The position numbers were made by a program, and so were the translations under genes. Shown here piece by piece: positions 26,016 to 57,585 of a stretch of DNA of 64,000 bases. The notes beneath the pieces were generated by a model that was not told the origin of the DNA, did not search any database, and saw nothing but the letters and a program-made list of their open reading frames with translations. The first letter of the stretch is position 1. Each line of letters begins with the position of its first letter. This stretch comes from Capitulum mitella (Eukaryota; Arthropoda; Thecostraca; Pollicipedomorpha; Pollicipedidae): NCBI GenBank assembly GCA_030062745.1, contig CP099840.1:31623006-31687005 (forward strand). Reading direction: 5' to 3'.

Positions 26016-26137
26016 CGTGGGCGTAGGAACAAGGAAAGGAAAAGGGGTTATGCCCCACTTTTTTGAAATTTAACAGAAGTTCTATGGGGAAAAACGCCTC
26101 TGCCCCCCCCCTTTTTCCGGATGCTCCTCCGCCCCCG
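26016..26137. mobile_element. Short hAT-like MITE
   Basis: Ends CGTGGGCGTAGGAAC and, reversed, CGGGGGCGGAGGAGC match at 12 of 15 bases. They are flanked by CACAGCCA and CACAAACA (6 of 8). 122 bp, non-coding. The ends are less canonical than other hAT-like copies here, so this is a moderate call. Confidence 0.45.
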
Positions 26138-26505
26138 CACAAACAGTATATGAAACCTCTGCTCCAAACAGTAACGTCCAGGCTGCGGCCAGCGTCACGC
26201 CTGAACGGATTCAGGGATCCGGCGACCCATGGATGGCGATCTAGGCGTAACAAGAGAAAACACTCCAGAGCATGACTCAGGTCTCAGGGACTGACTGAAA
26301 ATGAGGCATGGCACCATCGCTTTTTGGATTTCAAATGGGCTCAGGATAGACCACAACACTGGAAGAAGATGAATATCCCCCAAATGACTGCCTGAAGCAC
26401 CACACATTTGCTTTGGGGTTTCAGAGGCATTACACAGCTCCACGTCCTGGAACTATCCCTGATATTAATGGCAATCTTCTGCCCTAAGGCGCCTCCTTCT
26501 CCCCC

Positions 26506-26508
<3 letters not shown>

Positions 26509-26536
<28 letters not shown>
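26509..26536. repeat. (TG)n microsatellite
   Basis: About 14 uninterrupted TG units in intergenic DNA. Confidence 0.9.
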
Positions 26537-26539
26537 GAT

Positions 26540-27385: not shown

Positions 27386-27391
27386 TTTATT
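27386..27391 (-). terminator. Candidate poly(A) signal of the Gly/Tyr-rich peptide gene
   Basis: AATAAA on the minus strand about 205 bases past the stop codon at 27596-27598. Confidence 0.45.
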
Positions 27392-27595
27392 AAACGCCAT
27401 TTTGAGCGCAATGTCGTGTAACCCAAAGTACCTATTATTCTGATCTACTCCTGTATTCGCTGACGCCAGATGCCGCATCCTTGTTCTTCACAAAACGCAG
27501 GCAAGTTTGCATTCCTGAACACGGGAAACCTTGTTCGAGACATAAGATGTTAAGTGCTCACCAGGCTGCGCATTGTTATGCTTGCCACCTTAGCA

Positions 27596-28799: not shown

Positions 28800-29824
28800 C
28801 TCCGTCCTAATCAATGCCAGGTTGCAGGGACCAGAAAACATTCTGATGCATGTCTGAAAGGCGGCCGTACAATTACGTCGTTATAAAATACTGGACTTAC
28901 TCTTTTGTTTCCAAAATGTCGTGACTGAACTGTACTCTCGCTTCGTTGGTAATTTTGCAACAAATCCGAAAATTCCTGTTCAGTTGTATCGTTTTAGCCT
29001 TCAGGATTCATGTCATGGTTGTAGACTGTAGTCTTGTTTAGAGGAGAGGGTATGCGCCATTTCGAGACGATGTCTCCCCAAGCAAGACGATAAGGCTCAT
29101 ACCAAAACTTCCCGAAGTATACCCTACGGACTGCTACTCCTATGATCTGTTGAACGATTTTGTAGTGTCATTTCACTGACACATAAATCACGAGTATAAC
29201 ACAGCAGCAGTCGAGCACCTAACGCAAAGAGCATGCTCCAATGCATGGCTGGAAATTTCCAAGAATTGCTGGGGAGGGGGGAGTCCACATAGGGTTTCAA
29301 ACCGTTTCTTTCCAGTCACTGCCATAGGCCTAATGTTCCCTGAATATTGAGGTTCCGGACCCCCTCCCCCTCCCAACCGGATTGCCAGCCATGTCCAAAT
29401 GCCAATGTTCTAACACGCCAACCAGTGACGTATTGAAAAAGCAACAACCGAAAGAGTGTCAAAAAGAAAATCTACGGGACTCCAGTTTTTTTGTGAGTCA
29501 GCCAACGCAAACACTGGCCCACCATTTAAAGCACCGTGGCATCCTTTCGAAGCTGGGACGCGTTTTCAAGTTTCGGGGTATATTTCCACGCCCGGCGGTT
29601 CTCTTCTCGGTTTCGAGGGCGTCCTTCTAGGCCTGAGGGCCTTCTAGGCCTGTCCCTCAAGCATCCGAGGCTCCATTCCAGAGCTCCGGGGCCCCCTTCC
29701 GATAATCGGGGTGCATCTTTAACTCTGCCGGTGCTCATAACGCTAAGGCGCATTCCCGTATGGGGAGAGGCGTTTATTCAGCCCGCTCCTGAGATCTCAA
29801 GAACTAACCAACCGGTCTCATTGC
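28800..29824. other. Intergenic with low-complexity G/C-rich patches
   Basis: At 29560-29720 the sequence shows degenerate phrases like those inside the larger hAT-like elements (GGCCTNNNGGCC, CCTTCTAGGCCT). It is probably an eroded transposon, but no ends could be found. Nothing else recognised. Confidence 0.35.
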
Positions 29825-30950
29825 ATCAAGCGACAATCGATTTGCTGCGACATAAACTACATTTTTATAGAAAGAAGTTTTGGAAACTTTGAAAGTGGGC
29901 GGATGCAGGGTGGAAAAACGTCAGAAAGGGGGGGGGGTATTTTTAGTTATTGTAACTCCATTGTTTATAGTCCGATTAGATGCAATTGTCATGAATCGAG
30001 ATATAATCGATGGGACTTTTCCTGTTAACCTATAAGGTTTGATTTTCGGAAAATTCATAGGCGTTTACAGGACTTGGAAAAGAAGGGAAATGTTTCTTTA
30101 ACTAAATGAACATGAAAGGTAAAATATTTTTGGGGTCTTTTACTAGTCATATTATACTTAAGAACTGCAAATCGTGTTACATTGTTCGTATAATGTTGGC
30201 AGAGGCGGCGCTAGGGTCATGAAAACGGGAAAGCTGTCATGATCGCATGTTCATCAAGTCAACTCTCGTCCTTTGACCTTAAATAACCTCAAATGACCTC
30301 CGAGTTGCATGGAATGGTCTTGAATTACTTCACGGTATCTGAAACGTTTCCAGCCATTTGAATTAGCTGTATTTCTAAAAACTATAGATCTGTGACCCGA
30401 CCTGATATTAAACTGAAATTTAAAATACAAGTAGAGGGTAATGTTTGGAGTCACGGGTTTTCCGGATTCTGTATTTCAGAATTAAGTTGCGGAAACATAT
30501 ACATAAACATTATTTTGGTTTTTGATCTTGGCCTGACCTTGTGAAGTGGACTCAGATGAACAAAATGTTTTTGTTGTCTCATTTATTTCCTAATACACTC
30601 GCACAAGTATTAAAGCTTTATCTCAAGAATTTTATTCTTGGCAGCCATTTGTCTTTTGCATTCAGAAATGTCAAAAATGACCTAAGGTGCCTCCCAAAAA
30701 ATTGGTGTGACTGTGCCCCTTGGTCAGGGGCGCTGGAACCGTGGGGACAGGGGACAGCTGTCCCCAACCTTGGGCAACATTTAACGTTAACCCTATGACA
30801 CTACATGGAAAGAAACGAGGTAAAAATCGCGTTTGCCCCCCCCCCATCCATCTCCACAGAGTTTCCACCGCTCCTGCCCTGGGCAAAATGTAATTATGAA
30901 AATCTGATATATAATATATCAGATAATACGTAGGAAGAATATAATAGAAG
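29825..30950 (-). mobile_element. Inverted, end-less copy of piggyBac-like family 1
   Basis: Reading the minus strand, segments line up in order with 12880-13890: the GGCGTTCA/CATGAATTTT region, the GGTCATTTNAGGTCAAAGG region, the gene-like words around ATATCAGGTCGGGTCAC, and AAGGTCAGG. Neither TTAA end is present. A hAT-like MITE at 30725-30876 is inserted near one end, and the alignment resumes after it (GCAAAATGTAATTATGAAAAT). Confidence 0.6.
30725..30876. mobile_element. hAT-like MITE, 152 bp, nested in an older element
   Basis: Ends CAGGGGCGCTGGAACC and, reversed, CAGGAGCGGTGGAAAC. Flanks CCCTTGGT and CCCTGGGC agree at six of eight positions. Non-coding. A clearly older relative lies at 45496-45614 inside GBA2 intron 1. 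Confidence 0.65.
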
Positions 30951-33858: not shown

Positions 33859-33862
33859 TTAA

Positions 33863-35126
33863 CCCGTCCCCGACTGGGGGGCAGTTGACTGCCCCCCTGA
33901 GGTTTTTCGGGGATTGCAAGAGAACGAACAAACACAGAGTCACGAAACTTTGTGTACCTTTTGCTTCATCAGTTTTACATCTCGTGTCAAAATTTCGACC
34001 TCAGATCAGATCAGGTGCCTGACCTAGGTCAGGTCAAACAGACCTATGTCCAAAAACGTTTAGCGCCCTCTAACTTTTTCGCAAAACAAGATACCTCAAT
34101 AATACTTTCAGGGATCAGTGAACGTGATAGATGCAACAAATCTGCTATCTCAGATTTTTCGGAATTTTCCGGGTCATTGATCTAAGGTCAAGCCCATTTT
34201 TAAGACATGTCGTCGTTTCTCGAAAATTGACGGAATATTTCATAACATTTTTAATGTGGAGTCAAGCAGACATCTAGTTACCGTCATTAGGCAAAGTATC
34301 GTCATCAGGCAAAGACCTCAGGTCAATAGCTGGAATTGACCTGAGGTCAGGTCAATTCCAGCTATTGACCTGAGGTCAGGTCACGAATAACTGTAATGAG
34401 CCAAAATATGCCACCGTTAAAATCATCGATGAATTCCTCAGAATGGGTAGAAAATGACAGAACTAGCTTGCACAGACGTAAGTAATACCAGGAACCTCAA
34501 AAAGTTTGAAAAAGTAGTATATTTTGGACATGAACAGGCTCTCGCGAATAAAGCTCCGCCAATTGTGTAGATTGGTAACTAGTGAATTTTTCCAAAATTT
34601 AAACATGCAAAACCATTACAAGAACCTATAAGATCAATAAAATATACATAGGGCGTCTTTTTTCGCGAAAATAAAGGAACGCTAAAATTAGTTCCCCGTT
34701 AATTTGTTACTGCATACGGCAGCAGCGCACGCCTACAGTTACCGTGAGAAATGCCGTGTCTTTAACTCAACGTTTCGGCGTATATATTGAACAAATCTGG
34801 GAAATTAGACGTGTATCGGCATCCGCAGACTTTTGCTTGTGCGCTGGTGCCTTTACCTAACTGTTTTTAGTCACAGCCCTTGAGATTCAGGCCATTTCTT
34901 GGTCTCATGCAATCGGGTATGAGAAAACATATATAGGGCGTAAATTGCTTACATATTATCTAAAACTAAAAATGAGACCAGTTTCGAGCTCTGCTCGTCA
35001 CAAGGTTTCCAACGGTGTGCTTATTTTTATCGTGCGACCAACCGTTTGTGAGTTAGAGTGGAGAGGGCGGCCCACTGCCCCCCCTTAGTCGCCCTTGTTC
35101 GAAACGGACCGACGGTCGTGCGCGGG
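33863..35126. mobile_element. Non-autonomous piggyBac-like element, family 2, copy A (full length)
   Basis: 1264 bp between TTAA sites (33859-33862, 35127-35130). Left end CCCGTCCCCGACTGGGGGGC; the right end reversed begins CCCGCGCACGACC, so the terminal match is short. A subterminal GGGGGCAG...CTGCCCCCC hairpin follows the left end. No transposase frame. Several AGGTCA half-sites lie in the left third. A different family from 12773-13978, although both show TTAA and CCC ends. Confidence 0.75.
34314..34377. repeat. Perfect 29-bp inverted repeat with 6-base loop
   Basis: Arms 34314-34342 and 34349-34377 are exact reverse complements and contain AGGTCA/TGACCT hexamers. It lies inside family 2 copy A; copies B and C have only a single arm-like sequence here. 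Confidence 0.9.
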
Positions 35127-38845: not shown

Positions 38846-41800
38846 CAGGAGCGGATCCAGGATTTCGTCAGGGGGACGAATGGTCAGCGCGGGGTCCTCT
38901 CCTGCCCCCCCCCCCTTTTTGCATTTGAGATATAAAGAAACCCTGATCTGCTCGGGTCCAGGCGGAAATACTTGATCTAATTTTGCGTGTTTTTCCATGA
39001 AAGGCAACCAAAAAAAAAACAAGCGCGTCACACCATTCAGGAAAATTTTTCGTGTCGTTCCCGTACAAAGTGCCCAAAATATGACAACGGCGAGATTTTA
39101 GGCGGCTGTGTCCCTCCCTCTACTTGAAATGTCGTGTCTGTATGTGGTCCAGGAGCCCCTCTGCCGCTTTGTAGCTTATGAAGACCTTTCGCTAGCTTTT
39201 TGGTGATCTTGGGCCATCTGCCGTTTCAAGGTCGTCTAGTGGTCTCAGGTTCCTTTTACAGTTTCACGTGTCCCTCGGGACGTCTCAGGCGCTCCTTTGG
39301 CGGCTGTAAGGACACCTCGGGCAGTGTCATAGGGCCATCCGGCAGCTTCAGGGACACTTGAGCCATCTCGGGTCCCCTCCTGTCGCCTCTGGAGAATTTT
39401 TGCGCCTAAAAGGCCCCTCAGGCAGTACCAGGGACCTTTATAAGTCTCACTCTGCCGTGACATGGCGGCCTTTGTAATCCCCAGGCCGCATCCTCTGGCA
39501 GTTTCAGGAGTTGTCTGGACGTCTCAGGGTTTAATAGTTTCAGGAGCTCCTCTGGTCGTCTCAGGGGCCCGTTTTGCTGAAGACTTCTAGTTAGCAGCCT
39601 CAAAGGTGCATCTTTAGCAGTCTCAGTCGACCCTCTGTGGTCTTGGAGCCGTCTTATCTTCTCCGGGGAGCTTTTTTTCGCCGTCTCAGGGGCCCTCTGG
39701 CAGCTACAGAAGACCTTTTGGCGATTTCAGGGCCCCTGTGCAATGTCATGAGCCTACTGATCTCCAGTCTCCAGTATCTCCATAGCTGGACCTTCCTGTG
39801 TTGCATGGGGTATATCTGACAGTTCTTAACACGCACATTGGAAGGGGATTTCGTGCTAACGCGCACTGGAAGGAGGAGTCAAAAAGTGCCCCTCCGATCT
39901 CGGCAACGGAAAGAGTTAGAGACATGAAATTTTATGGACAGAGTAGGGCCACAACGATTCACATTTTGTGCAATTTTTATGACCCTAGATCAATATCTTC
40001 AAGGTCAAAGGGGTGGAAAAGGTCAGCTTTTGACACTTTCTCGGCGCATACAGGCCATTCCATTCAACTTTTCGAACGAAACGGGAAAAGGGTGTTTGTT
40101 TGGCCGTTAAAACGAGGATACGACAACTTCCATCCATTCTGCGTATTGACTGAGGATTAGGTTAAGGTCACGTCAGGTCATTAACCTATGGTGTCATTTT
40201 TTATCCTTTGCAGATCATATTTCGAGCAACACGGGGCAGCTCGAATGTAAATAAGGGCGAAACACTTGTCTTTTGGCTTATTTTCAGTAAAGGTAGTCAA
40301 CATTGATACATTTGGTCATTTCCTGCGTTTCTATGTATGTATGTATCTATCTGTATATATGTATATACTTGTATCAATGTGTCAGCGTGTTTTTATTAGG
40401 GTCTTTGCATATTTGATACAAATTGGCATATTGCAAAAAATCTGGACCAGGCCACAAAATAGCTGCTCTTGACCTTTGATGACCTTGACCCGAAATGATC
40501 CTGGTATATACGTAAGCATATCCATGTGCGCACACCTGTTTTTATTAGGGTCTTTGAATACATATTTCGTACAAATCGACACGTCGCAAAACAAATCTGG
40601 GCCAGGTCACAAAATATTTGACCTTGATCTTAAATGGCCTTGGCCTTCACTGACCCTGGTATTTGTAAGCGTATTAATGTGCGCACACATGTTTTTATTA
40701 GAGTCTTTGAATGCGTATTTCATGCAAACCGACATGTTGCAAAGCAAATATCGGTTACAAGCTGTCAAACAAACTGCTGGTTAAAGATCAGGTTACAAGC
40801 TGTTCGACCTAGGCTTTTGATGACCTTGATCCTTATTGACTCTGACTTTGGTCTTGGTATATCCATCACTTATGCCCAGATGACGTCGCGTGATTGTGCT
40901 CAAACGATAATCTTAGGTAGAACGCTGGTTCATTCACAAAGTTTCCATTTGCCAGCGACAACATTCCTTTTCGTCACGTTTGCCTGACCTGAAACGCTTG
41001 AAACATAAAAAAAATTCAGCCGATTTTCGATTTTTCTGCGTCATTCGACGAGTTATTCAATTGCCATGAATTTCACAAAGTACCAGCAACCAGCTCTGAT
41101 CTGTTCTCGAGATATTCAAGAAAAACAGGCGGGGGGGGGGGGGGCACAAAGAACTCCTTCCAATGCATGTGTTAAAACCACTCTAGCCGTATCAGGGGCC
41201 TCTGTTGGCACCTGAGGGGATTCACTACAGTCTTTTCTGTGCCAGAAGCCCGCCTAACGCACCCGGGGGCAGAGGCGCAGCCGGCACAAAATTTCGAAAG
41301 GTCCTCGCCCGCGGTGGGCTCCCTCACTTCATGTGGGCTCCCGAGACAGAAATACCAACATAACACTTCACAAGAGGCTCACAAAGGGGTGCGGTCGGCC
41401 CGATATCTCGAGGGTGGGGGTGCGTGACCAACGACGAGCCCGTATCTCATGTGCGCGTCCATGGATAAAAAAAAAAAAAACAGTTAAAATTCTGCCACAA
41501 TGGTCACTTGCCGTTCCTCAAAGTTACCATTTGCAACCAGCTGGCTCTTCTCTGATTGTCGATGTTGGTGGCAAAACCAATTTTATACTGGGGATCTCCA
41601 TAACTGTCAGGGGATCCCTCTGCAGACTGTCACGGGCTTCTATACATGCCAGAGGACCTCTCTACAGGCCGTAAGCAAGCTCTCCCACAAGCCGCCCGGG
41701 GCCCCTACAGGCGGCGGCAAGGGCCCTTGCATGTCAGCAAAGTCCGACGGGCAAGGGGCCCTTACAGACCGGTAGGGCTCCATAGCACAACAAGAACTCC

Positions 41801-42655
41801 CTCCACACGCCAGCAGGGACCTCGAAGGTCGGAAGGAGGCCCCCTTCAAACCGGCAGGGGGCCCTGTAGGCCGTCAGGGTGCCCCTGCAGGCCGACAGGG
41901 CGCCCCTTGTAGGCCAGCAGGGAGCCATTACAGATCAACAGGAGCCCTGCATGCTGGCAGCGGATCCTACAGGCCTGCAGGGGTTCCTTTAGGCCGGCAG
42001 GGGGCCCTCACAGCCTGGCAGGGACACGGCAGACCAGTAGGGGGTTCCCTACAGGCTGATAGGGGACCCTCTAGCTTGGATCTCTTTACGCGGTCGCATG
42101 GACCGTTTGCCGTCTTGGGGTCCCTCTTGCGGTCCTAGGGACACTTGTAGAGTTTCAGGGGCCTCTCTGTCTATCTTTGAGGCCATCTTGCCGTCTCAGG
42201 ACCTCATTAACCCTCCCCTAAGCTTTCTGACTGCATCAGGAACCTTCAGCTTTTCACACATCTCTTCACATGAAACCCATTCGGGGCGCCTATCCCATTT
42301 CATTTGTCCCTATGCCGTCCTAGAGATTCAGCCCTCATCTTAACCTACTCAGGGACCCTGGGATGTTTCTGGCGGTCTCAGGGGCAATCTACCGTGCTGG
42401 GGCTTTGTTGTGGTCTCAGGGGCCCTTTGGGAGCTCCAGGGGTTCCTCTATACATCTCACGGATCATCTAACCCTGTCACAGGCCCTCCTGACTGCATCA
42501 AGAATCCGTTACATTTTGACAGAGACCCCGTGATACTTAAACGTGGTCCTTTTGAGTCTGAGAGGGGCCCCCTAGGGGCCCGTCCGAAGATGGGCCCTTC
42601 TCGGGCTTCGGGGGAGGGGTGATCGCCTTCATCGCCCCCTTTGGATCCGCGCCTG
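38846..42655. mobile_element. Large non-autonomous hAT-like element (3.8 kb) filled with degenerate repeats
   Basis: Left end CAGGAGCGGATCCAGG and right end reversed CAGGCGCGGATCCAAAGG are inverted repeats. Flanks ATTAGAGC (38838-38845) and ACAAGAGC (42656-42663) agree at six of eight. No transposase frame. Two stretches (about 39150-39780 and 41600-42600) are degenerate tandem phrases like CTCAGGGGCCCCTCTGGCAG and its mirror. The middle part has repeated TGACCTTGA and AGGTCA words. Confidence 0.65.
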
Positions 42656-42663
42656 ACAAGAGC

Positions 42664-43600
42664 CGAGGGTTTGCATGCATTTTGGGATTAGAATCCTAGG
42701 GTGAATGGATTTGGATTGGGATCGGGATTCGAGATTGTAAAAGATTCGAATCTTGGCATCAAATATCAGAATTTTTAACCTTTTAATTTTACATGCTTCC
42801 CACTTTTAAACTGAATTAACCGGTTTCTGGTTGTCTGTTCTTAGCGCATTTGACATTGGGGCACTTCTAACGTTTCGGCCAGAAAATGGAAACATGCTGG
42901 AGGCGGAGTAAAACCAGTCACCACAGCAGGGTCCGGTCAATAACTAATGCATTGTAAGAAAACGTAGACTAAGCGACTTAGTCCGACGTAACATGCACAG
43001 AGAGAGAGAGAGAGAGGGGGAGAGAGGGAGGGAGGGAGAGAAAGAGAGAGAGAGATTTGTGATACATTTAATTAGTTCGAAGAAAGTCTGAACCTGGGAC
43101 ATACTTCGACATACTAACTTGCGTACTGAAATGATGCTTATGGGACTTGACTGTGGTTTTAGGATTCGAGTCGTGATTTTCAAGGTTTGAATCCTGGCTT
43201 TCAGGATTAATTCGAGAATTCGCAAGATTGGAATCTATTCGAATTCTGCAAATCCGAATCCTCAGCTCCAGTTTGGATCTAGGATCTATAAGATCTGTAT
43301 TTTTGATCCATTTTTGGAACAGAGTCGCACGTTTGATGACGAAACAATTATTCTACGTGCAGCGCGCACGGGGCGATTGGAGAGTGCGTGACATCATAGA
43401 AATAAACTTTTCCCAACAATGACAAATGATTACAGATCCTGGGAGTTCGACAATCAACGCGCTTATGCGACGTTTAGATGAGGTATTTGCGGCAGGCATG
43501 AAGCCGGTGGTCGGCCGGCCACACCTCTTGCGTAGGGAGTGCGTGGAGTTGCCCGCTCCCTTCTTGTCTGTGGCGTGGTGGTTCTAGAAAGCGAACAGCT
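42664..43600. promoter_or_regulatory. Upstream region of GBA2
   Basis: Contains a GA-rich microsatellite (42992-43057) and repeated GGATTNGAATC-like words at 42680-42780 and 43140-43270. The last 230 bases before the ATG are CpG-bearing (GCAGCGCGCACGGGGCG at about 43350), unlike intron 1. Probably the promoter and 5' UTR. The GBA2 frame stays open upstream of the ATG, so a longer N-terminus is not excluded. Confidence 0.4.
42992..43057. repeat. (GA)n microsatellite
   Basis: AGAGAG runs with GGGA interruptions upstream of GBA2. Confidence 0.85.
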
Positions 43601-43738
43601 ATGACAGAATATGGATTCCAAGTAAAGCTTGACCACACATTTCCTGAGAGATGGGATGCAAATTTTCGGCCTCGTCTCAACCAAGTATGGGGCTTTGTTT
43701 CCCTGGGACTGAGGTAAGTTTTGATGTTATTTATTTGT

Positions 43739-43773
<35 letters not shown>

Positions 43774-46700
43774 TGTATGTACTTAGTGAGCGGCAGCTAA
43801 CAACAGCAGGTGATGACAGCATGTGCATTATCTGATGCATGTGACATTAACAACCCAAACCACATGGATGGAAATCATGCCTGCATCAATGCATATGAAG
43901 CAGCAATAACATTTCATGGTAAATTGTAACAGTCACTGAACAGTACAGTAGGAAACAGTAACTACCAAACACTAAAAGCCATCAGTACACTGCAAACACT
44001 GCTGTTTTGGGATCAAAACCTTGTCCAGTCTTCTCCATTTATTTGTACATGCCTCTTTGTTCATTTTAATCTAGCTATTTATCATTCTTGCATGATTTTC
44101 CTTCTTGGAAATAGTTTGTGCTGTTCCAAATGTGGATTATACTGCTTGCATCTCACTGTGTAGACCACTGTTGTAATAGATACAGTGATATTTTCTTTAG
44201 CTGATAGGTCTGTTGGGAAAAACAAATCCTTTTGAAGGGCTCAGTGCAATTCCCGTGAAAGACAGATCTATGCACATTACTTATAAAGTTTTTTTTTGTT
44301 ATTTGGCAATGACTAAAGAGGTGCAGCAGTGTTCCTTTACTGCTTTTGCAGAAGGAACAAAGATTGTCTTTTCTTTGGTTGATGATTGCAAGGAAATGAT
44401 TTGCCACCATTGTATGATTGATGAGCTTGAAGTGGAAAACATGTAAGTATGATGATGTGGTGCACCTGTTGATGTCAAAAAGTGTACCTTTCCAGTATTT
44501 ACCTATATCTTTCAGTCATTTGGTTTCTGCTTTTACAAATGAACATTTTTGCATCATATATGTGTAACAAATGCATTGTATGCCATTTTTCCTAATGTGT
44601 GAACATTGTAAACTGTTTTCAGCCTAACTGGAAAGACAGGTGCATTTGTATCCATATGACACTGTCCTGAAACATTTGTGGCACTTGTTATTCATCATAC
44701 TAGGCTTTGGTAATTCAAGAAATTCATTCTTATCCTGTAACAGTAAAATGATTTGTTCCTTGTTCAGAACTGTTTTGTGCTAGGATTAATGAGATCTGTT
44801 ATGAACCTGAGTCCTTTATTGTTCCTTTCCCTGACAGTTGTGTTTGGGTTTGGGATGTAGTCAGAAAACCAGATCTGCTCTGTTAACAAATCCTTTTTAC
44901 TTTTGTCCCAACACTTCTTATATTCAGCCCATGAGGAAAGTATACCAATGCAGAACCTTTCATTTACATTTTGTTTAAACTTATTTAACTACAGCATACT
45001 GCACAGAACAACCCTTTCCACACTAGGCAAAATGTGAATTCTTCTTAATTCTGCCCAGTTTGCTTTTGAAAAAAAGTAGACATGAAACTTTCCAATTTTA
45101 TTTTAAATTGCAGGGAATGGGCTGGGTAGAGCCATGAACAAATGAACCAGTTTGGATACACCAAGACATTTCACTATGGTAATGCTACCAAGAAATGCAA
45201 GTGGCCATTTCCTCCAAAAGGCTAGCACTGCATTTACATCATCTAGCTTGCTTGTGATGTTGAACTCCACAATTTGCTTGGGGTTTCTGGCAAAAATTAT
45301 CCTAACAACTTTAAGTTCTAGGACCCTAGTTTAGCTGAGGAACTTGCTCCCTAAGCTGTGTTTTATCTATCTTACCTATAGCTGGGACTGTGGTAAGTTG
45401 TTGGTATCCAAAGGGGTGGCAAAATCATATCTATAACCTGTTGTTGGAGGTATTGGTGGTAAAATGGACATATTGAGAGTGGATAGGCTATTTTCAGCAG
45501 CTGCCTCCCCCAGTTTTTTGAAAAAATTAACACTAACCATATAGTAATGCATGGGAAGAAATGGGCACAAAATCATGTTTGCCTCCATTTCCATAGGCTC
45601 CACTACTCCTGGTGTCCCAAGTGCACAATTGTGCCATGGTCCCTGGTTGAACCAGGTGCTGAAGAAAAATCCTACAAGATAGTAGCAAAGCATCTGATTT
45701 GTAAATCAGGATTTGAATGTAGGATAAAACTGTTTTGGAATGTTTTTGTACAGACATATTCAAAATGTCAAAATGATTAACATCAGTAGTTTACTTGCAT
45801 GGTGTTTTGTGACTGATGTACTGTCATGCATGGAGCAGTTCTGGTCTGGCCTCAAAACTTTACCCTGCAGAACAAATTTGATCCCTGCTTTGGAATCTCT
45901 TGACATTGTGTCCAAATGTCTGGCTGCCTTCTGGAATCCCTGGTCAAATATAGGTCATTGTTTCTCATTCCAGGACCTCTCATATGCTGCATTCATTTAC
46001 CCAACACATTCACCACTTGATCATGGTGGTACTGGTCATGTGCATCTCATAAAATAAAGTTGTTGCATTGTTCAGTGCTGTACCTGTTTTGTTTTGTATT
46101 GGTTATTGAAAGGTGGACATGTAACATAGCTATTCCATGGCTGCTGAGGTGGAAAAGAGTTCCAAGATATGTAATGATAGTCAAAATTTATGTAAGACGC
46201 CTGCATTGCTCAAGCTGGTACTGCAGTTGTTGTTTCTTTCTTGTTCCTTTTTTGTGGTTGTCATTGTTTAGAAAAGTATCTTATGATCTCAGTTACCTCT
46301 GATTTCACTTATGGTAATAAGATACTTATGGTAGTAAGACTGAACTACTCAGTCAAATGCAGAAATCCTGATATCATCCAAAAGATTTTGAAATTTGCGA
46401 CCCGAATCATCTCGGGCAAGCGCAGATTCGACCACGTGTCGGGTGTGCGGGACACCCTGGGATGGCGTGACTCATTTCAGCTCTTCCAATACCAGTCCCT
46501 CTGCCTTCTCGACAAAATCCAAACCGCTAGCCAACCCGAGTGTATCGCCCGTCAGATCTGCGCAAACCGAGACCACCCTGACCACGTCCGTCCCACGAGA
46601 CAGGACGGTCTGCTACACGTGCCCAGTATCCGCACTGAGGCGGGGAAGGGTTGCTTTGTGCACAGGGCTCCATGTCAGATGAATGTACTGCCATCACACA

Positions 46701-47010
46701 TCCGTGATCTGAATGTCGCACCCTTCAGGCGGAAAGTAAAGGCACGTCTGCGTGCTGTCCGCGATCACCAGTACCCCTTCTGTTAGCTGTGGCATCATGC
46801 TCGCTTTTATATTTGTATTTTCTACATGCTAAGTATATACTACTATTTTTACTCCTGCTATGTTCACTATCTACTCTTAGAGTTAAATAGTGTTTGAAAC
46901 CCTTTTGGATGGGGAATTTTTAACCTAAATGGAAAAAAAATTTTTTTAGGGAAAAAAAATTTTTTTTTTTTTTTTGAGCCCTTTTTTTTTTTTTTTTTTT
47001 TTTTAATTTT

Positions 47011-47057
<47 letters not shown>

Positions 47058-50000
47058 ATAAAATTTAACTCCCCTTTTATTTTTTTATAACCACTTTTAA
47101 AAATTAAAAAAAAAATTTTTTTTTTTAATTTTATTTTTTTTTTTAAAAATTTTAAAAAAAAAAAATAAAAAAAAAAAAAAAAAAAAGGTGCTCTGAGGCT
47201 TGAGTGCACTGAACAGGGCAGAATTTTATTTTCGATCTTGGCGTTGGAGTGTAATTTTCGTTTTGAAGCTCATGTTTCCCAGAGTAATCCTGGTTTAAGT
47301 TGGCATTCTTGATGTTAGTTGGTCAGGTATGTTGTCATACCTACTTAAAGCAGTTATGACATCATACCTGCTTCTTTCTGAATGGAGACAGGGTTATCTG
47401 CATGCAAAGTCAGGAATCTGTCAGCATGGTTATGATTTAACTTTTTGATGGAGGCACAATATCAAACTTTTGGAGCAGAAAGTGTTTTTGGAGCATAAAC
47501 TTTCTGGTGGCCCTTACACAAAAAAACAACAAAACAAAAAAATGGTACCTTCTCCAACTCTGCCCATAATCATTCAACACTCTAGGGGTGAAGCAGAGTT
47601 ATTTGTGGCATGCTATAGAAATGTAATGTCAGTCTATGGATTACTGTTCACAGTATGCTATTCATTTTTGTATTAGGGATTAAGCATAATTTTGCAATAA
47701 TGATCCTGAAGTGCATTAAAACTTCATTAGAACTTAATGTTTTGCTTCATAATGGACTTTGGACAGAATGGGACAGGACTTTGTAATGAATGTCCTGTCA
47801 CTGAATTTACATTATTTCATCTACAGCATATTTGGCAGTTACATCAAGCAGGCAGATCACCTTATTTTGCTGCATTCGTATTAGTGTTATGGTTTTTGAA
47901 AATTAGTATATTTTTTGTCCATTTGAAAGTGGTTTCCAAATGCATTGAAGGATTACTACCTATATGCCATCCTGGACTTCTTACTTTTTTAATTCTTCAA
48001 CAGAGCAAAGGTGACTGATGATCATTTGGTATTCTTTACAGATATCTTGTGTGGTATTTTGGAATGTGGTTTCAAGGAAAGAAACCATTTATTGACCAGC
48101 TTCACCCTGTCACTGGAAAGCAAATATATGGTAAGTCATTCCCAATAATGTAGTGGCGACGTGTAGGCATAGCGTGCAAGTTTTTAGTTTGTGCATTTTG
48201 AAAATCATAGCATTGTGACATTTCCCATGAGCATGCTGGTAGCTGGTGTTTTGCCCACCTCTGTCCAGGTTTGTTCTGGCGTTGTGGAGCCAGTAGTATT
48301 GGCAGCCTGGAGATGACCATCGGTAACGGGACGTGCCGCTGGCCGCCAGGCGTGCCCCTGGGCGGCATCGGCTCCGGCACGGTGGGGCGCGGCTTCTGCG
48401 GCGAGTTCACCCGCTTCCAGATGCGGCCCGGCCTCTACGACTACGCCACGGCGGCGGCCGACCAGTTCATCGTGCGCGTGGCCGGCTGGCCGGGCGGCGA
48501 TGCCGACTACCAGCAGGTGCTGACGTCACGCGCGGCGCCGGCCGGCCGGCTGGGCAGCTGGCGCTGGTCGTTCCCGGGCGAGGAGGCCAGCTACCGCGGC
48601 CTGTACCCGCGCGCCTGGACGCGCTTCACGCTGGCCGACCAGCAGCTGGTGCTGACTGTGCGCCAGGTCTCGCCCGTCATACCGCACAACTACAAGGTAG
48701 GCCGCCTCACTGCCGGGCACGTTGGCGTGTCGCACATTTGTCCGTCCGTCCAAGGGTGAACCCATTGGAGCGATTTCACGGATCAAGCGACTTGAATGTC
48801 AGCTGGGCTGCCAAAATTAAGGCTGGGAAAATTATTGTTAGCCTTGCATATCGCTTGACTTTAGCGAAGGCGTCACCGTTTGTTAGCTGCTGGGCATTAC
48901 GGCTGCTCCGTAGACACTTGAAACAATACCCGCGCTGGTTCAGAATGGCCATTTATGCCTCGTCGAAGGCAGCAATGACGAAGACGACTTCCTTTTAAAT
49001 GCGTGGCGAAATAAGGCCCTGTGTCATGTGACGAGGAAATAACGCTCTCCGCTTCCTTTTATCACCACTCACGTCTCGTGGATTGTGCTGTTCTATGGTA
49101 CACCGACACGTTTGTGGCGGGTATTCTCGTTGTTATGGTGCCACGTTTGGGCGTGCTTCAGGACACGTCACTGCCATGCGGCGTGTTCGTGTGGGACATT
49201 GAGAATACGGGCACCGAGGAAAAGGACGTCAGCATCACCTTCACATTCGAGAATGGAACTGGCTCCAAAAACTCAGGTGCGACTGTGACGCCTTCCGTGT
49301 GTGTTTTTCTAGCTGTTTTAGAGGGATTCCACTTTGGCCAGTAGGGATTCACAGTATGCATTAGGTTTTCAAGTAGCCCTCGCAACATAACTTTTTGTCG
49401 CGAACAGTTGTGCACAGCGGTTTGGCGACGGGCTGTCGCGAGGCTAGCTACGATGTTAACATTCAATCGTCCTTGTGCATTCTGGTCAATCTCAGGAGAA
49501 ACTTGTCATTAAGCTTCACCGCAGCATTTGACGCGGTTCGTGTCGCTCGCCCTACGCCGGAAAATCGCCAGTTTGTTGTTATTACAGCCTTAAAACTACG
49601 CCGGGTCGGAGGGGGGGGGGGAACGCCACATCTGAGCCGTCGCCCTAGACGACCACCCCCACTCGGCTGAGGGTGGGCCGTGCCGCTGCAGGGACCCGTG
49701 GCGTGGCGGTGCCGTTCGGTCCTGACCAGCCGGCGGCGGACGACGTGTCCGGCATGATGATCCAGCAGGAGGTGGCCGGCGTGCCGTGCCGGTACGCCCT
49801 CGGCGTCCTGTCTCAGGTACGCGCCGCCGCCGGCCGGCCGGAGGTCGGGGCGCTCCGGCCGACACCGAACTGCCGAGGACGCGGCGACCTGGCCGTGCGG
49901 CGCGACATTATCCGACCACGTCACTGCCGAACGCATTCCAGTCTCGGTGACAACGAATAGAATTATCTGTCGTGCTAGAAATCGTTTGATCGTTATAAAA

Positions 50001-53000
50001 ACCTGTTCAAAATTGACAGACTTGTACATGATGCACAAGAGCGTGTACGACGTTGTCTTATACTGAGGCGTCTCCGTTTCAGGAGGGTGTCAGCGTCAGT
50101 AGGACTACATTTGATCCGACCGGGAACGGATCAGACCTCTGGGATCAGCTGGCGAAGAGGGGCTATCTCACCTTCCAGGAGAACAAGAAGGAAGCGTCAA
50201 GTATGCGGGCTAGTTTTGACGCGTCTGGCGCCGGGGACGCCCATTTCTGTTCCCTCGATCAGCGTGCTTCTGCCTCGCAGGAACCTCGCAGTGGTGTGAA
50301 GGGACACGTTAACCTATCTTGCACTGTGCGCTTGCTGACCGTGGCGGCTCGCTTCAGTGACGTCATCGTCCCAGTCCGCCCCAGTCAAAGAGCAGCCCTG
50401 CGCGATATTGGCTGCTACGTCTGGCGCGCCTGAATCGTGTGTCCGTAGGTAAATTTTGTTTGTGTTTCACAATAGACGACTACTTGATCATGTGCGTTAA
50501 GACTTAAATGCCCCGCAACGTTATACCAAGGACAGGTTAAGAGGACGTAATGGTTTAACTAACGCGGTATCCGTTCACCCCGTCCGTGTTGTGCTGCCAG
50601 GTGTGGGTGTGGCCGTCAGCGGCGGGGTGACGGTGCCCGGCGGCGCTCGTCGAACACTCGAGATGGGCCTCGTTTGGCACATGCCCGAGATCAAGTTCGT
50701 CGACGGAGGCGCTCCGCTCAGACGGTGGGTCGGGACTGCAGTGTCGCACGGCGGGGCGGTGTTCGCAGTGGTCGGTACGCTGCAGCGCTTCGAGCTGTGG
50801 TAGCGGGATATCAGATGTGCTGATCGAAACGTGTTCTTAGGATTGTGAAGATGTGTAAGCCTTATGTGTAAGCCGAATAGCAATCAGTGTCAGGAAGTTG
50901 TGGTAAGGTTAAGCAAAACTGATTTTTTGTCTCTGATTCCGTTTCTAAACATGTGGAAAGTCATGGCAGTGGAATGCGTCCTTAAAGGTAAACCTGTACA
51001 AGGACCATTGGGTAGTTTTGAGACACGTTTGGTGCTGAGGGTGTTTAAGCCCGGTGCGACAGGTGTAAGCCCGTGGTAACAACTCGTGCCACAGGTACTA
51101 CACTAAGTGGTTCGAGCAGGGCCAGCAGGGGGCAGAGCGGCTCTGTCAGTACGCCTTGCGCAGCCGGGAACGCTGGGAGCACGAGATCGACGCCTGGCAG
51201 CAGCCGATCCTGGCCGACCCGTGAGTGCGCCGTGTGTCCCGTCTGGGGGCGTCCGAACAGGGGCACGGCCGTAGTGATGGCGGGCTGTCAGCTGCCGTTG
51301 GTCGGCCCCCGCTCTGCCGTGGCGAGCTCCCGGCAGTGGTAGTCTCCGACTGTTGCTCGCGTGCCAGGCTGTCGAAACACCCGCGGGGGTCCGGTTTGGC
51401 GCCTCCAGGGACGGATATCGGTGTCTGGCTGCTCGGTCTGGACGCCCTACCCTGTTCCAGTGGCCTGCCGGACTGGTACAAATCGGCCCTCTTCAACGAG
51501 CTGTACTACATATCGGACGGAGGCAGCCTGTGGCTGCGGGCTCCCGGCGAAGAGGAGCTGCCAGAGTTGGACCCCAGGTAAGCCCCTGCTCTGGGGCCGG
51601 TCCGACCGGCCGCCACGACACGGGAACACCGAGACGTGGGACCTGTATGTAGCGGTCACCGCGTGGCCTGTGTATAGCGGTCCACCATGTGGCCTGTATA
51701 TAGCGGTCACCGCGTGGCCTGTGTACAGCGGTCACCATGTGGCCTGTATGTGGCGGTCACCGCGTGGCCTGTATATAGCGGTCACCGCGTGGCCTGTATA
51801 TAGCGGTCACCGTGTGGCCTGTATGTAGCGGTCACCATGTGGCCTGTATATAGCGGTCACCGTGTGGCCTGTATATAGCGGTCACCGCGTGGCCTGTATA
51901 TAGCGGTCACCGCGTGGCCTGTATATAGCGGTCACCGCGTGGCCTGTATATAGCGGTCACCGCGTGGCCTGTATATAGCGGTCACCGCGTGGCCTGTGTA
52001 TAGCGGTCACCATGTGGCCTGTATATAGCGGTCACCGCGTGGCCTGTGTATAGCGGTCACCGCGTGGCCTGTATATAGCGGTCACCGTGTGGCCTGTATG
52101 TAGCGGTCACCGCGTGGCCTGTGTATAGCGGTCACCATGTGGCCTGTATATAGCGGTCACCGCGTGGCCTGTGTATAGCAGTCACCGTGTGGCCTGTGTA
52201 TAGCGGTCACCATGTGGCCTGTTTATAGCGGTCACCGTGTGGCCTGTATATAGCGGTCACCGTGTGGCCTGTATATAGTGGTCACCGTGTGGCGTGTATA
52301 TAGCGGTCACCATGTGGCCTGTATATAGCGGTCACTATGTGGCATGTGTACAGCGGTCACCGTGTGGCCTGTATATAGCAGTCACCATGTGGCCTGTATA
52401 TAGCGGTCACCATGTGGCCTGTATATAGCGGTCACCGTGTGGCCTGTATATAGCGGTCACCGTGTGGCCTGTATATAGCGGTCACCATGTGGCCTGTATA
52501 TAGCGGTCACCGCGTGGCCTGTGTATAGCGGTCACCATGTGGCCTGTATGTAGCGGTCACCATGTGGCCTGTATATAGCGGTCACCGTGTGGCCTGTATA
52601 TAGCGGTCACCGTGTGGTCTGTATATAGCGGTTACCATGTGGCCTGTATTTAGCGGTCACCGCGTGGCCTGTATATAACGGTCACCGTGTGGCCTGTATA
52701 TAGCGGTCACCGTGTGGCCTGTATATAGCGGTCACCATGTGGCCTGTATATAGCGGTCACCGTGTGGCCTTATATAGCGGTCACCGTGTGCCTGTATGTA
52801 GCGGTCACCGTGTGGAGCGGTCACCGTGTGGCCTGTATATAGCGGTCACCGCGTGGCCTGTATAGCGGTCACCATGTGGCCTGTATATAGCGGTCACCAT
52901 GTGGCCTGTATATAGCGGTCACCGTGTGGCCTGTATATAGCGGTCACCGTGTGGTCTGTATATAGCGGTTACCATGTGGCCTGTATTTAGCAGTCACCGT

Positions 53001-56000
53001 GTGGCCTGTATATAGCGGTTACCATGTGGCCTGTATATAGCGGTCACCATGTGGCCTGTATATAGCGGTCACCGTGTGGCCTCTATATAGCGGTCACCGC
53101 GTGGCCTGTATATAACGGTCACCGTGTGGCCTGTATATAGCGGTCACCGTGTGGCCTGTGTACAGCGATCACCGTGGGACCTGTATGCAGCGGCCAGTGT
53201 GACCTGTATACAGGAGTCGTGGAACCTGTACACAGCGGTCATCGTGTAATCCGTTACAACGGCCACAATGTAACTGGTATACAGCAGCCACATTGGGACC
53301 AAAATAGCTGTGCGTTGTCTGCCTGGCTGAGCGGAGTTGAGCGGGCGGAGGAAACGTTTCATACGTTGCGCTCGCTTGCCCGGTCCATACAGTTACGCAT
53401 GATGCACGCAGGAGCAGACGGCGTACTCATGAATGGCGAGCCTCAGAATGCAGGGCGTTTTCACGCACGCTGCATTTCTGACGTTGACCCTAGTCCAATT
53501 TTGTCCTCCCCCGTCATCCTTATCCGCGCTGGACCACCCCTCCCCCCAAACACCAGACGGTCCGGCCATCGTAACCAGCCATCGCACGCCGTCCGGTCCT
53601 GTGTTACCTGACTCACCACTGCCTGCGACCGTTACAGGCGGGAGTACGGCCGGTTTGCGTACCTGGAGTCGCACGAGTACATCATGTACAACACGTACGA
53701 CGTACACTTCTACTCGTCCGCCGCGCTGATCCAGCTGTGGCCGAAACTGCAGCTCTCCCTGCAGTACGACATGGCGGAGTTTGTCGCGCAGGTGGGAGCC
53801 GTTTTCGCCCCTACGGCACGGGGCGATTGGGATGCTATTTGGTGCATGGATATCGCAGGTGAGATGATAATTGTTACTGATTCTCTGGCATGCGTGTGGA
53901 TACCCAGGAATGTCATTTGTGTCGTTCGCGGCCGTTGAGCGGCGAGAGAGCAGCCGCGTGGCTTGGTGAATACCGGGCGTATCCATTCTCCGTATGACTG
54001 TGTCACTGCCCGTACTGCCCGGAGAGGCCCGGCAGTGGTTACCTGTCCTTATGCTGACTCCGCAGTTATGCTCAGGAGGACCTGTATACCAGCTTTACAG
54101 CCTGGTCCTGTCCTGACCCCTGAGCCATGTCCGCGGGAGAATCTGTACGGCCCGTCCCTGTCCTGACCCCTCAGCCGTGTCCGCTCTAGGATCTGTTCGG
54201 TCTGTCCCTGTCCTGACCCTCAGCCGTGTCCGCGGTAGGATCTGTATAGTCTATCCCTGTCCTGACCCCTTAGCCGTGTCCGCTGTAGGATCTATGCGGT
54301 CTGTCCCTGTCCTGACCCTCAGCCGTATCCGCGGTAGGGTCTGTATAGTCTATCCCTGTCCTGACCCCTTAGCCGTGTCCGCTGTAGGATCTATACGGTC
54401 TGTCCCTGTCCTGACCCTCAGCCGTGTCCGTGGTAGGATCTGTACAGTCTATCCCTGTCTTGGCCCCTTAGCCGTGTCCGCGGTAGGATCTGTTCGGTCT
54501 ATCCCTGTCCTGACCCTCAGCCGTGTCCGCGGAAGGATCTGTACAGTCTGTCCCTGTCCTGACCCTTTAGCCGTGTCCGCGGTAGCATCTATACGGTCTG
54601 TCCCTGCCCTGACCCTCAGCCGTGTCCGCGGGAGGATGTGTACGGTCTGTCCCTATCCTGACCCCTCAGCCATGTCCGCAGGAGGACCTGGAGAGTCGCA
54701 AGGCGCTCTACAGCGGGAAGACCGTCCCCCGGAAGGTGGCCAACACGGTGCCGCACGACGTCGGTAATCCAGGCGTGCCAGGTGCGTCCGGCGGCCTGCC
54801 GCGGCTGCGGTCGGCACCGCGGCCCGCCGGCCCGAGCTCCGGGCGCCTGAGGTTCGCAGTAGGCCGTGCTCAGTCGCGGGGGATGTTGTTTCAGCTTGCG
54901 CCCCGTTTCGCGCGTGAGAGCGTGAACGCGATGGTTGCCAGATGCCACCGGTGCGGCATTCGAAAGACGCGGCCGAACGAGGCTGTGTCGTTTTTTTAAG
55001 GTCTAAAACGTGTACTGTTGTATGTTGTTTGGCAATAACATTGTCCATTTTATCTTTGCCATCCAGATGAAATGCCATTCTGCAAGCTGAACGCCTATCA
55101 GATTCATGACGTGTCGACCTGGAAAGACCTGAATCTGAAGTTCGTCCTGCAGGTTGGTCTGTGTTACGCGCGAATATCAGTGGACCTTGAGATGCGTGTA
55201 TTAGCATTGTTAGCGCATGTTATGTCGCCTCCTGAATCAATATTGTTTCATCGTGGAAAGACAACTAGTCGATGTTTTGTTCTTCACTGTTTGGAAAGGA
55301 AATATTCGTTCCGCACGAGGCGTGGCGCACGCCGGACGAGTGGCTGTCTCGGGCCGCCTCCCCAGCCGGTGCTCCGTGTGTGTTCCCAGGTGTTCCGGGA
55401 CCACCGAGCGACCGGGAGCCGCCGTTACCTGGAGGCCATGTGGCCCTCCTGCTGCGCCGTGATGGCCGTGGCCCGCTCCTGGGACACGGACGGCGACGGC
55501 ATGATCGAGAACTCGGCCGTGCCCGACCAGACGTACGACACGTGGGTCATGGAGGGGCCCAGGTGAGCCGGTTTCGTCCTGGTCCCGAGTCGGGACCGAC
55601 CGGGCCACCGCGGTCGGCGGCCCGGTCGGTACGGTGCACGTGTTCAGTCGGGTCGTCCTGGGGCTAAGGAAACGGCCATGCCGGATGGGACTACTGGAAA
55701 CATTTTTCCCTGCGTTTCCGTGCATGTGTAACATGAAAGTTTGCGGCGACCGTCGAGGACGGGCGAGACGCCAGATTCTGCGTTGCTGGAGCGGTGCTTG
55801 ATGATACGCTTTATGGATCGGAGACGCCGCCTCTGGTGCCGTCCGGCACTGCCAGCGTGAGCGGTGCATGCCTTGCGTCGCCGCTGAGGTTGTTGTCTGA
55901 CGTGTGGCGGCTCTGCACCGCCGGCAGCGCCTACTGCGGCGGCCTCTGGGTGGCGGCGCTGTACGCCATGACCCAGATGTCAAAAGAACTGGAGGCTGCT

Positions 56001-57585
56001 GACGTCCACGACCTCTACAGCGACCTCCTGACCAAGGCGCAGAAGGCTTACGTCGACAGATTGTGGACCGGTTAGTGGGGGGCTTTGCCATTTCTTTGTA
56101 GTATTCATACTTGATTGGATGCTTTGTTTCTCCCTTGTCTATTGTGCACTTGTTCCGTTTTCTTGTCGGAATCGCCTTCAGATGGTTTTGCATTAGGCTG
56201 TGATTAGTATGACTGTCTCGTGTTCATTTACTGTGGGACGGGGTTTGTCCGTACAGACAAACCCCGTCCAGTCGTTGCCGGAGCCGGTAAGTGTCCTTCA
56301 CGTGCGTGACTGTTCCTGATGGGTTTCTGGTTACGTTCGGCAGGCTCTTACTACAAGTTCGACTCGTCCTCGGGCGGGCACGCGAAGTGCATCATGGCGG
56401 ACCAGCTGTGCGGCCACTGGTACCTGCGGGCCTCGGGCGTCTCCGATCCAGTGCGTGCAGCCGGAGTCTGCGCTCTGTGTTAGGGGGGCCGCCGTAAGGC
56501 GAGCCAGGAGCCAGCTGCTGCAGGCAGTCATTTGGGAGTTCTGCTATTGCTTCATATGCCTCAGGACTGGTGCTGGCGCGTGTTTCCCGCGGGATGCGGA
56601 CGAAATATCGTGGGGATCGATTACGAAGGAAAGAATTAGAAACACTTGAAATCCGTCGCATGGAGATATATACCTGAGCATTCCCTTGTAAAACGTACTT
56701 TACCACTAATTTGTTTCAGGGTCACATTGTGGCCCTGCGGTGTTACCTCTTATTGTTACGCTTCCTGGGCATACTATCTTTTGGGGATCTCGCGTTACCC
56801 CTGCCCCCCGCCACTTCATGGCACTGACAGCGGCTGCCCCCGGCGACGGACGGCTGGCGCCAGCTGCCCTGGTGACACCGTCTCTCCTGTCGCCGACCGG
56901 CAGGTGTTCAGCCACGCGTCGACGGCGCTGCGCACGGTGTACGAACACAACGTGCTGCAGTTCCGGGACGGCCGGCAGGGGGCCGTGAACGGCATGATGC
57001 CCGACGGACGGGTCGACGAGCACACCCTTCAGAGCGAGGAGACGTGGACGGGCGTCACGTACGCGCTGGCCGCCGCCCTGATTCACGAGGTACGGCCGGC
57101 CGTCGACGGTGCTGCCATCTCCCGGCCGTCGACGCCGACGCCGGGGACACGCCGGAGGCCACGGCGAGGCTTTATTTTGTGCGTTTCAGCGTTTTCCCGT
57201 GGCCACGACCGCGTCGTTTGCATTTCGGTATCTCTGTCATGCCAAACGACAAAATTTTCTCGCTTTTTGATGCACCATTTGGCGAACGGTCGAAACCAAC
57301 AACGCAGAACTTTCCGTATTTCCCCGAAACGCCGTCCCGGATGTCTGCAAGTGGTGTCACGTTATTCGGACTGCCCCGCAGGGTCTGGTGGAGGAGGGGT
57401 TCCGCACTGCCGAGGGCATCTACCGCACCGTCTACGAACGGATCGGCCAGGGCTTCGAGACGCCCGAGGCGCTGTACCCGGAGCGCCACTACCGGGCCGT
57501 CGGCTACATGCGGCCGCTCAGCATCTGGGCCATGCAGCGCGCCTGGGAACAGCGCCGGAGGCGGGTCGATAGTGACGCCATCTAG
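43601..57585 (+). CDS. GBA2: Non-lysosomal glucosylceramidase (GH116)
   Basis: Hydrolyses glucosylceramide to glucose and ceramide at the cytosolic face of membranes. Seventeen exons: 43601-43713, 48042-48130, 48350-48696, 49162-49276, 49692-49816, 50083-50200, 50601-50724, 51095-51220, 51461-51577, 53638-53791, 54682-54781, 55067-55152, 55390-55562, 55928-56070, 56344-56450, 56904-57089, 57382-57585. All join in phase with GT-AG introns: 808 residues and no internal stop. The N-terminal beta domain shows [13 protein letters not shown] (about 70-82). The catalytic alpha-barrel starts near [17 protein letters not shown] (391-407) and continues with [17 protein letters not shown] (434-450), DGDGMIEN (572-579), PDQTYDTW (583-590) and [10 protein letters not shown] (784-793). 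The nucleophile Glu and acid/base Asp should lie in the second and fourth of these catalytic-domain blocks. It is shorter than human GBA2 (927), mainly at the termini. The start is the first ATG before [15 protein letters not shown], which matches the family N-terminus. Confidence 0.95.
43727..43773. repeat. (TTTA)n microsatellite
   Basis: About eleven ATTT units just inside GBA2 intron 1. Confidence 0.95.
44153..44410 (-). mobile_element. Old LINE reverse-transcriptase C-terminal fragment
   Basis: A minus-strand frame reads [20 protein letters not shown], the Cys-His zinc-knuckle-like block found after the reverse transcriptase domain of many non-LTR elements. 5' and 3' parts are absent. 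It is CpG-poor like the surrounding intron, so it is old. Confidence 0.45.
45496..45614. mobile_element. Old, CpG-decayed copy of the 30725 MITE
   Basis: Aligns with the right 120 bases of 30725-30876: AGCTG, TTAACACTAACC against TTAACGTTAACC, GCATGGGAAGAAATGGG against ACATGGAAAGAAACGAG, AATCATGTTTGCC against AATCGCGTTTGCC, and CTCCACTACTCCTG against TTCCACCGCTCCTG. Every CG in the younger copy is CA, TG or TA here. Confidence 0.6.
46378..46870 (+). mobile_element. 5'-truncated LINE 3' end (CR1/Jockey-type reverse transcriptase tail)
   Basis: Frame 46378-46786 reads [20 protein letters not shown] then [10 protein letters not shown] and ends with [20 protein letters not shown], the typical C-terminus of non-LTR polyproteins (ARII.G..KFDHV and LP..IR......F...L). 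A short 3' UTR follows. It still contains many CpGs, so it is younger than its host intron. Only the last 135 or so residues remain. Confidence 0.7.
46915..47187. repeat. Poly(A)/poly(T) block
   Basis: About 270 bases of nearly pure A and T homopolymers arranged as T-runs and A-runs, including a run of over 35 A. It may be an inverted pair of LINE tails or an assembly artefact. Confidence 0.85.
51640..53235. repeat. 25-bp minisatellite in GBA2 intron 9
   Basis: About 60 tandem copies of a 25-base unit close to GTGGCCTGTATATAGCGGTC plus ACCGC. Variation is limited to a few positions (GC/GT/AT after ACC, TATATA/TGTATA/TATGTA), with rare one- to four-base losses near 52770-52860. Edges decay gradually at 53170-53290. 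The unit length is not a multiple of three, and its open frames are not genes. Confidence 0.95.
54040..54690. repeat. About 50/99-bp minisatellite in GBA2 intron 10, ending at the exon 11 acceptor
   Basis: Roughly a dozen units of 49-50 bases (CTGTCCTGACCC..CAGCC, GTGTCCGCGGTAGGATCTGT). Two variants alternate to make a 99-base dimer. The last unit contains the real exon 11 splice acceptor (CAGCCATGTCCGCAG|GAGG). Confidence 0.9.
56237..56268. repeat. Perfect 13-bp hairpin in GBA2 intron 14
   Basis: GACGGGGTTTGTC, a six-base loop, then GACAAACCCCGTC, about 75 bases before the exon 15 acceptor. It would form a stable RNA stem in the pre-mRNA. Confidence 0.9.

What the first reader, a model, noticed from the sequence alone, without database searches (positions are those of the whole stretch)
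43714..48041. CpG desert in GBA2 intron 1, with a decayed repeat that records the mechanism
Long parts of this 4.3 kb intron have no CG at all, while neighbouring DNA is CpG-rich. An old MITE copy at 45496-45614 can be compared with its relative at 30725-30876. At the CGs of the younger copy in the shared part, the desert copy has CA, TG or TA (CGCG became CATG). This is the signature of deamination of methylated C. The younger LINE at 46378-46870 still has CpGs.
Basis: partly seen in the sequence, partly recalled or inferred. Interest (0 to 1): 0.72.

Follow-up and report, generated by a model that had tools for sequence, protein, structure and literature searches.

The report
Scar of DNA methylation in GBA2
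The front part of an animal gene has lost almost all of its CG letter pairs, most likely because they were chemically marked in the germ line for a very long time and slowly mutated away; the process is known, and what stands out here is how complete and sharply bounded the loss is.

Summary
The CpG desert is real and far beyond chance. 43793-46196 holds 1 CG; 2000 shuffles average 86, minimum 58. The rest of the window has CpG o/e 1.03, and other AT-rich windows average 0.91. CG is lost and mainly TG and CA are gained: about 140 CGs missing against about 162 extra TG+CA. The repeat comparison holds at 5 of 5 CGs, but it is one pair at 64% identity and direction is only partly shown.

Correction: the desert is not an intron feature. 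It begins in exon 1 or early intron 1, runs through exon 2 and ends between 48125 and 48327; the next 8.9 kb of the gene has o/e 1.05. Best reading: footprint of dense germline methylation over the 5' part of the gene. It does not match the exon 2-4 pattern described for Daphnia and Nasonia, because exon 3 onward is CG-normal and most of the footprint is intron. Low silent-site GC in exons 1-2 is only partly explained by CG loss. Methylation was not measured; species unknown; the own-genome search did not complete.

The parts
43674..48320 (+). CpG desert (with a CG-normal insert inside), 5' part of the GBA2 gene
   Evidence: ML change points 43674 (interval 43674-43867) and 48321 (48125-48327); core without insert and poly-A/T: 11 CG for 136 expected, o/e 0.08
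43793..46196 (+). strongest stretch, 1 CG in 2404 bp; TG o/e 1.59, CA o/e 1.51
43601..43713 (+). proposed first coding exon of GBA2; 2 CG for 5.9 expected
   Evidence: splice donor and phase, counts; assignment of exon 1 also rests on a recalled likeness to human GBA2, no call aligned it
48042..48130 (+). exon 2 of GBA2, inside the desert, 0 CG
   Evidence: splice signals and phase; its last residues align to a solved relative; count (there taken to 48131)
48350..48696 (+). exon 3 of GBA2, CG-normal (51 CG, o/e 1.08)
   Evidence: Pfam PF12215 E 5.8e-38 on the frame 48211-48756
45496..45614 (+). decayed repeat copy without any CG
   Evidence: aligns to 30725-30876, E 1.7e-5; 5 of 5 CGs of the other copy are CA/TG/TA here
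30725..30876 (+). repeat copy outside the desert that keeps CGs
46378..46870 (+). LINE-like insert with normal CG content (31 CG, o/e 0.94)
48697..57560 (+). remaining part of the GBA2 gene, CG-normal (788 CG, o/e 1.05)
   Evidence: Pfam PF04685 on frames 55039-55563 and 56640-57569

Best explanation
The desert is the mutational footprint of dense, long-lasting CpG methylation in the germ line over the 5' part of the GBA2 gene, in an animal whose DNA around this gene is otherwise CG-normal and so presumably unmethylated. Methyl-C deaminates to T, so CG became TG on one strand and CA on the other until almost none was left. Older DNA inside (the decayed repeat, exon 2) lost its CGs; a younger insert (the LINE-like piece) has not yet. 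Shown: CG-specific loss, compensating TG/CA, the two ends, inclusion of exon 2, a CG-normal rest of the gene. Inferred: methylation itself, its presence in the germ line, its persistence today, and what sets its ends.
For: 1 CG against a shuffle mean of 86. Against 54 overlapping 1-kb control windows of GC<0.46, CG departs most (z -6.7), then TG (3.5) and CA (2.2). About 140 CGs lost (10-step estimate) against 162 extra TG+CA, and the restored GC of 0.41 is that of neighbouring AT-rich DNA. TG and CA are raised alike (387 for 268 expected, 291 for 189). Transitions at 6 of 10 CpG bases of the repeat against 5 of 44 other ungapped C/G, Fisher p 0.0026. Only two low segments in 64 kb in a two-state HMM, both here. 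Codons ending NCG: 0 of 9 in exons 1-2, 52 of 122 in later exon pieces (summed).
Against: No methylation data, no second gene, no other species. TC (z -2.0) and CT (1.8) also shift. 4-fold GC in exons 1-2 (8 of 28) is below what full CG decay from later-exon usage predicts (at least 0.49; P 0.021), so something besides CG loss made this part AT-rich. The repeat test is one pair; a possible third copy outside the desert shows CA and TG at 2 of the 5 CGs too. Described arthropod methylomes favour exons, with exons 2-4 highest; here exon 3 is CG-normal.
Confidence: 0.85

Rival explanations
1. CG-poor foreign or inserted DNA: a large element, or DNA of another organism joined in by assembly, sits in the gene.
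For: The left end lies near a (TTAT)n run at 43727-43778 and there is a poly-A/T tangle at 46915-47194 that looks like poor assembly. GC is lower than in the rest of the gene (0.37 against 0.58).
Against: Exon 2 lies inside and joins exon 1 and exon 3 in phase with splice signals. The TG/CA gain matches the CG loss, which a merely CG-poor foreign piece need not show. A chimera would need two joins within one gene that keep the frame.
Confidence: 0.05
2. Selection or another CG-specific process unrelated to methylation (for example avoidance of CG in the transcript, or an enzyme that edits or removes CG) cleared the segment.
For: The best stretch is very complete: 1 CG beside 440 TG+CA sites. 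At a loss-to-gain ratio of 18 (human-like, recalled) 12 would be expected, P 6.5e-5; about 50 gives P 0.066.
Against: That stretch was chosen after the fact; the whole core (11 CG, 678 TG+CA sites) fits a ratio near 30 and is only marginal at 18 (P 0.037). The insert inside keeps its CGs, which selection on the transcript would oppose. Later exons of the same transcript are CG-normal.
Confidence: 0.05
3. Ordinary AT-rich intron composition.
For: The segment is AT-rich (GC 0.37), and silent sites of exons 1-2 are AT-rich beyond CG loss.
Against: 133 overlapping 500-bp windows with GC<0.42 elsewhere average o/e 0.91, minimum 0.50.
Confidence: 0.02

Closest known systems
5'-biased gene-body methylation of arthropods: Daphnia (PMC6097596, passages) and Nasonia (PMC3794928, passages)
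   Same: Footprint lies in the 5' part of a gene, starts about where coding starts, and fades well before the 3' end.
   Different: Those studies find methylation mainly on exons, highest on exons 2-4 (Daphnia) or in the first 1 kb of coding (Nasonia), with introns low. Here most of the footprint is intron 1, and coding is CG-normal from exon 3, about 200 coding bases in.
Exon/intron-even methylation in two crustaceans, Parhyale and Armadillidium (PMC7343188, passages)
   Same: Introns are affected like exons.
   Different: No report there, in the passages seen, of a bounded CG-free domain; the species of this window is unknown.
Inference of past germline methylation from CG o/e (PMC8821070 and PMC11706791, passages)
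   Same: Same logic: methylated CG decays to TG/CA.
   Different: Those use whole coding sequences per gene; here ends within one gene are resolved to about 200 bp and the o/e is 0.01-0.08, below the per-species means quoted (0.5 and 0.47).
Vertebrate genome-wide CG depletion (recalled)
   Same: CG loss with TG/CA gain.
   Different: Global there (o/e about 0.2, recalled), local and more complete here.

Membership tests
Mutational footprint of germline CpG methylation | CG o/e far below that of comparable DNA nearby | tested here: met
   0.08 in the core against 0.91 in AT-rich control windows
Mutational footprint of germline CpG methylation | Matching gain of TG and CA on both strands, other dinucleotides little changed | tested here: met
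   162 extra TG+CA for about 140 lost CG; z for CG -6.7, TG 3.5, CA 2.2, TC -2.0, CT 1.8, others within 1.1
Mutational footprint of germline CpG methylation | CG sites change by transition more than other C/G in homologous copies, with known direction | tested here: inconclusive
   6 of 10 against 5 of 44 in one pair, p 0.0026; direction supported by noise-level further copies at 2 of 5 CGs and opposed or ambiguous at 2
Mutational footprint of germline CpG methylation | The segment is methylated in the germ line | not testable with these tools
   no methylation data
5'-biased, exon-centred arthropod gene-body methylation | Footprint confined to the 5' part of the gene | tested here: met
   43674-48320 against o/e 1.05 over 48697-57560
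5'-biased, exon-centred arthropod gene-body methylation | Exons 2-4 affected | tested here: not met
   exon 2 has 0 CG for 3.1 expected, but exon 3 is at 1.08 and the 500-bp bins of 48501-50500 are at 1.05-1.27
5'-biased, exon-centred arthropod gene-body methylation | Organism is an arthropod with DNMT1 | not tested
   species not given; the own-genome search did not complete (16 tries, last)

The most novel reading that the evidence does not exclude
In this lineage germline methylation is laid down as discrete, nearly saturated domains of several kilobases over the first intron and exon 2 of selected genes, stopping before the CG-rich coding exons, and held long enough to remove over 90% of the CGs and to change codon use in the exon caught inside. 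That would be an intron-centred mode, unlike the exon-centred one described for Daphnia and Nasonia.
Probability: 0.25. Interest if true: 0.5.

Novelty: new member of a known kind. Interest (0 to 1): 0.36.

Why it matters
In DNA that is otherwise CG-normal, such a desert marks where germline methylation used to be, to within about 200 bp, without a methylation assay. It caught an exon and left no NCG codon in it, and inserts of different age inside it could serve as a clock of decay. If such domains are common in this genome, their ends would show whether methylation follows exons, the start of transcription or local base composition.

Tried and rejected
Rejected: plain AT-richness (controls); insertion or chimera (exon 2 inside and in phase; reads could not be checked).

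Not settled: whether milder footprints exist elsewhere in the window. Nine other stretches have 400-bp windows below o/e 0.55; their o/e as merged stretches is 0.46-0.64. The lowest, 41461-42720, is partly tandem repeats with TG/CA of 1.07, but four of the nine (13301-13800, 26041-26680, 27121-27520, 33241-34100) have TG/CA of 1.26-1.33. Over 110 windows outside the desert CG correlates negatively with CA (rho -0.38) and TG (-0.20), but about as much with AG (-0.30) and CT (-0.29), so I do not read this as partial decay.

Led nowhere: Rfam at gathering threshold, 0 matches. Pfam on 30 open frames in three answered calls: 3 matches, all GBA2 domains; 0 of 20. Many frames were not submitted, so other genes may be present. 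Papers on barnacle methylation: 6 listed, none on it by title; 0 with the Amphibalanus terms. 'CpG desert': 46 papers hold the term, 10 listed, by title mainly about epimutations and inheritance. Listings only apart from the five papers of which I saw passages.

Full report
Observation. Counted in 500-bp bins over 64 kb, CG o/e is near 1 in most bins and 0.00-0.07 at 44001-46000 and 47501-48000. The strongest stretch, 43793-46196, has 1 CG; 2000 mononucleotide shuffles gave a mean of 86 and a minimum of 58. CG-free gaps of 1944, 618, 463, 431 and 280 bp all lie in this region (the 431-bp one spans the poly-A/T tangle); the longest elsewhere is 205 bp.

Specificity. Against 54 overlapping 1-kb control windows of GC<0.46, the mean of four overlapping desert windows departs most for CG (z -6.7), then TG (3.5), CA (2.2), TC (-2.0) and CT (1.8); TT is -1.1, CC 1.0, TA -0.8, GpC 0.5. 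In the pooled core (43674-46377, 46871-46914, 47195-48320; the insert and the poly-A/T stretch left out) there are 11 CG for 136 expected. Restoring the control o/e of 0.91 takes about 140 CGs (estimated in steps of ten); TG+CA exceed the control level by 162; GC would be 0.41. TG and CA are raised alike. This is what deamination of methylated C on either strand leaves.

The unit is a gene segment. The gene is GBA2-like, family GH116 (PF12215 E 5.8e-38; PF04685 E 5.4e-31 and 1.5e-19), on the + strand to at least 57549. Exon 2 is 48042-48130 and exon 3 48350-48696 by splice signals and phase. The alignment to a solved relative begins at the end of exon 2, so exon 1 rests on phase and on a recalled likeness to human GBA2; several later exon pieces were picked by eye from frames. 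Change points are at 43674 (1.92-log-likelihood interval 43674-43867) and 48321 (48125-48327), and a two-state HMM finds only two low segments in 64 kb, 43681-46380 and 47261-48140. The desert thus takes in exon 2. Exon 3 is at 1.08, intron 3 at 1.13, and 48697-57560 at 1.05.

Codon use. NCG codons are 0 of 9 in exons 1-2 and 52 of 122 in later pieces (summed). 4-fold GC is 8 of 28 against 249 of 284. Decay of every CG at later-exon usage would leave at least 0.49, so the observed 0.29 is lower than CG loss alone predicts (P 0.021). Some further AT shift is unexplained.

Repeats. The copy at 45496-45614 aligns to 30725-30876 with 74 of 115 identities (E 1.7e-5 in the window search, 44.0 bits; the best hit of the desert's left part to the reversed window, a null, had 35.4 bits). 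All 5 CGs in the aligned part read CA, TG, CA, TG, TA; transitions fall on 6 of 10 CpG bases against 5 of 44 other ungapped C/G (9 gapped ones left out), Fisher p 0.0026 with bases taken as independent. Two further matches outside the desert (29276-29337, 32.6 bits; 25905-25959, 29.7 bits) are at noise level. In a poor alignment they keep CG at 2 of the 5 sites, one of them shows CA or TG at 2 others, and 1 cannot be compared. So direction is only partly shown, and decay outside the desert is not excluded. The LINE-like insert has 31 CG for 32.9 expected: younger than the decay time, or unmethylated; this cannot be told here.

Completeness. For the chosen best stretch (440 TG+CA sites, 1 CG) a loss-to-gain ratio of 18, recalled as human-like, would leave 12 CG (P 6.5e-5); 50 gives P 0.066. 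The whole core (678 sites, 11 CG) fits about 30 and is marginal at 18 (P 0.037). Strong, but within reach of ordinary decay.

Comparison. [quoted passage not shown] PMC3794928 that most methylated CGs of Nasonia lie in the first 1 kb of coding, with introns at 0.7%; PMC7343188 that exons exceed introns in most species but hardly differ in two crustaceans; PMC8821070 and PMC11706791 infer past methylation from CG o/e. The present footprint agrees in lying 5' and differs in being mainly intronic and ending before exon 3. I therefore file it as a methylation footprint, not as a member of the exon-centred arthropod type. Two listings showed no title on such a desert; that is no proof of absence.

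Limits. Species unknown (a GC-rich crustacean such as a barnacle is a guess from memory). One gene. Own genome never searchable (16 tries, last). No methylation data.

Noticed in passing
46915-47194: Tangle of long A and T runs with almost no other sequence, behind the LINE-like insert; looks like a poly-A tail spoiled in assembly or gap filling (inference).
   Followed up: no
51635-53210 and 54107-54686: Two tandem arrays inside the GBA2 gene: a 25-bp unit in about 63 copies (TRF period 50, 31.8 copies) and a 99-bp unit in about 5.8 copies.
   Followed up: no
43601-48130 versus 48350-57549: Silent-site GC jumps within one gene: 4-fold GC 8 of 28 in exons 1-2, 249 of 284 in later exon pieces; CG decay explains only part.
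   Followed up: partly
41461-42720: Lowest CG o/e outside the desert (0.46) at GC 0.57, partly imperfect tandem repeats of about 20 and 43 bp; TG/CA not raised (1.07).
   Followed up: partly
33241-34100, 26041-26680, 27121-27520, 13301-13800: Milder low-CG stretches (o/e 0.54-0.64) with raised TG/CA (1.26-1.33); weak footprints are possible.
   Followed up: partly
47324-47370: 47-bp palindrome, 85% self-complementary, inside the desert; perhaps the remains of a small inverted-repeat element.
   Followed up: no
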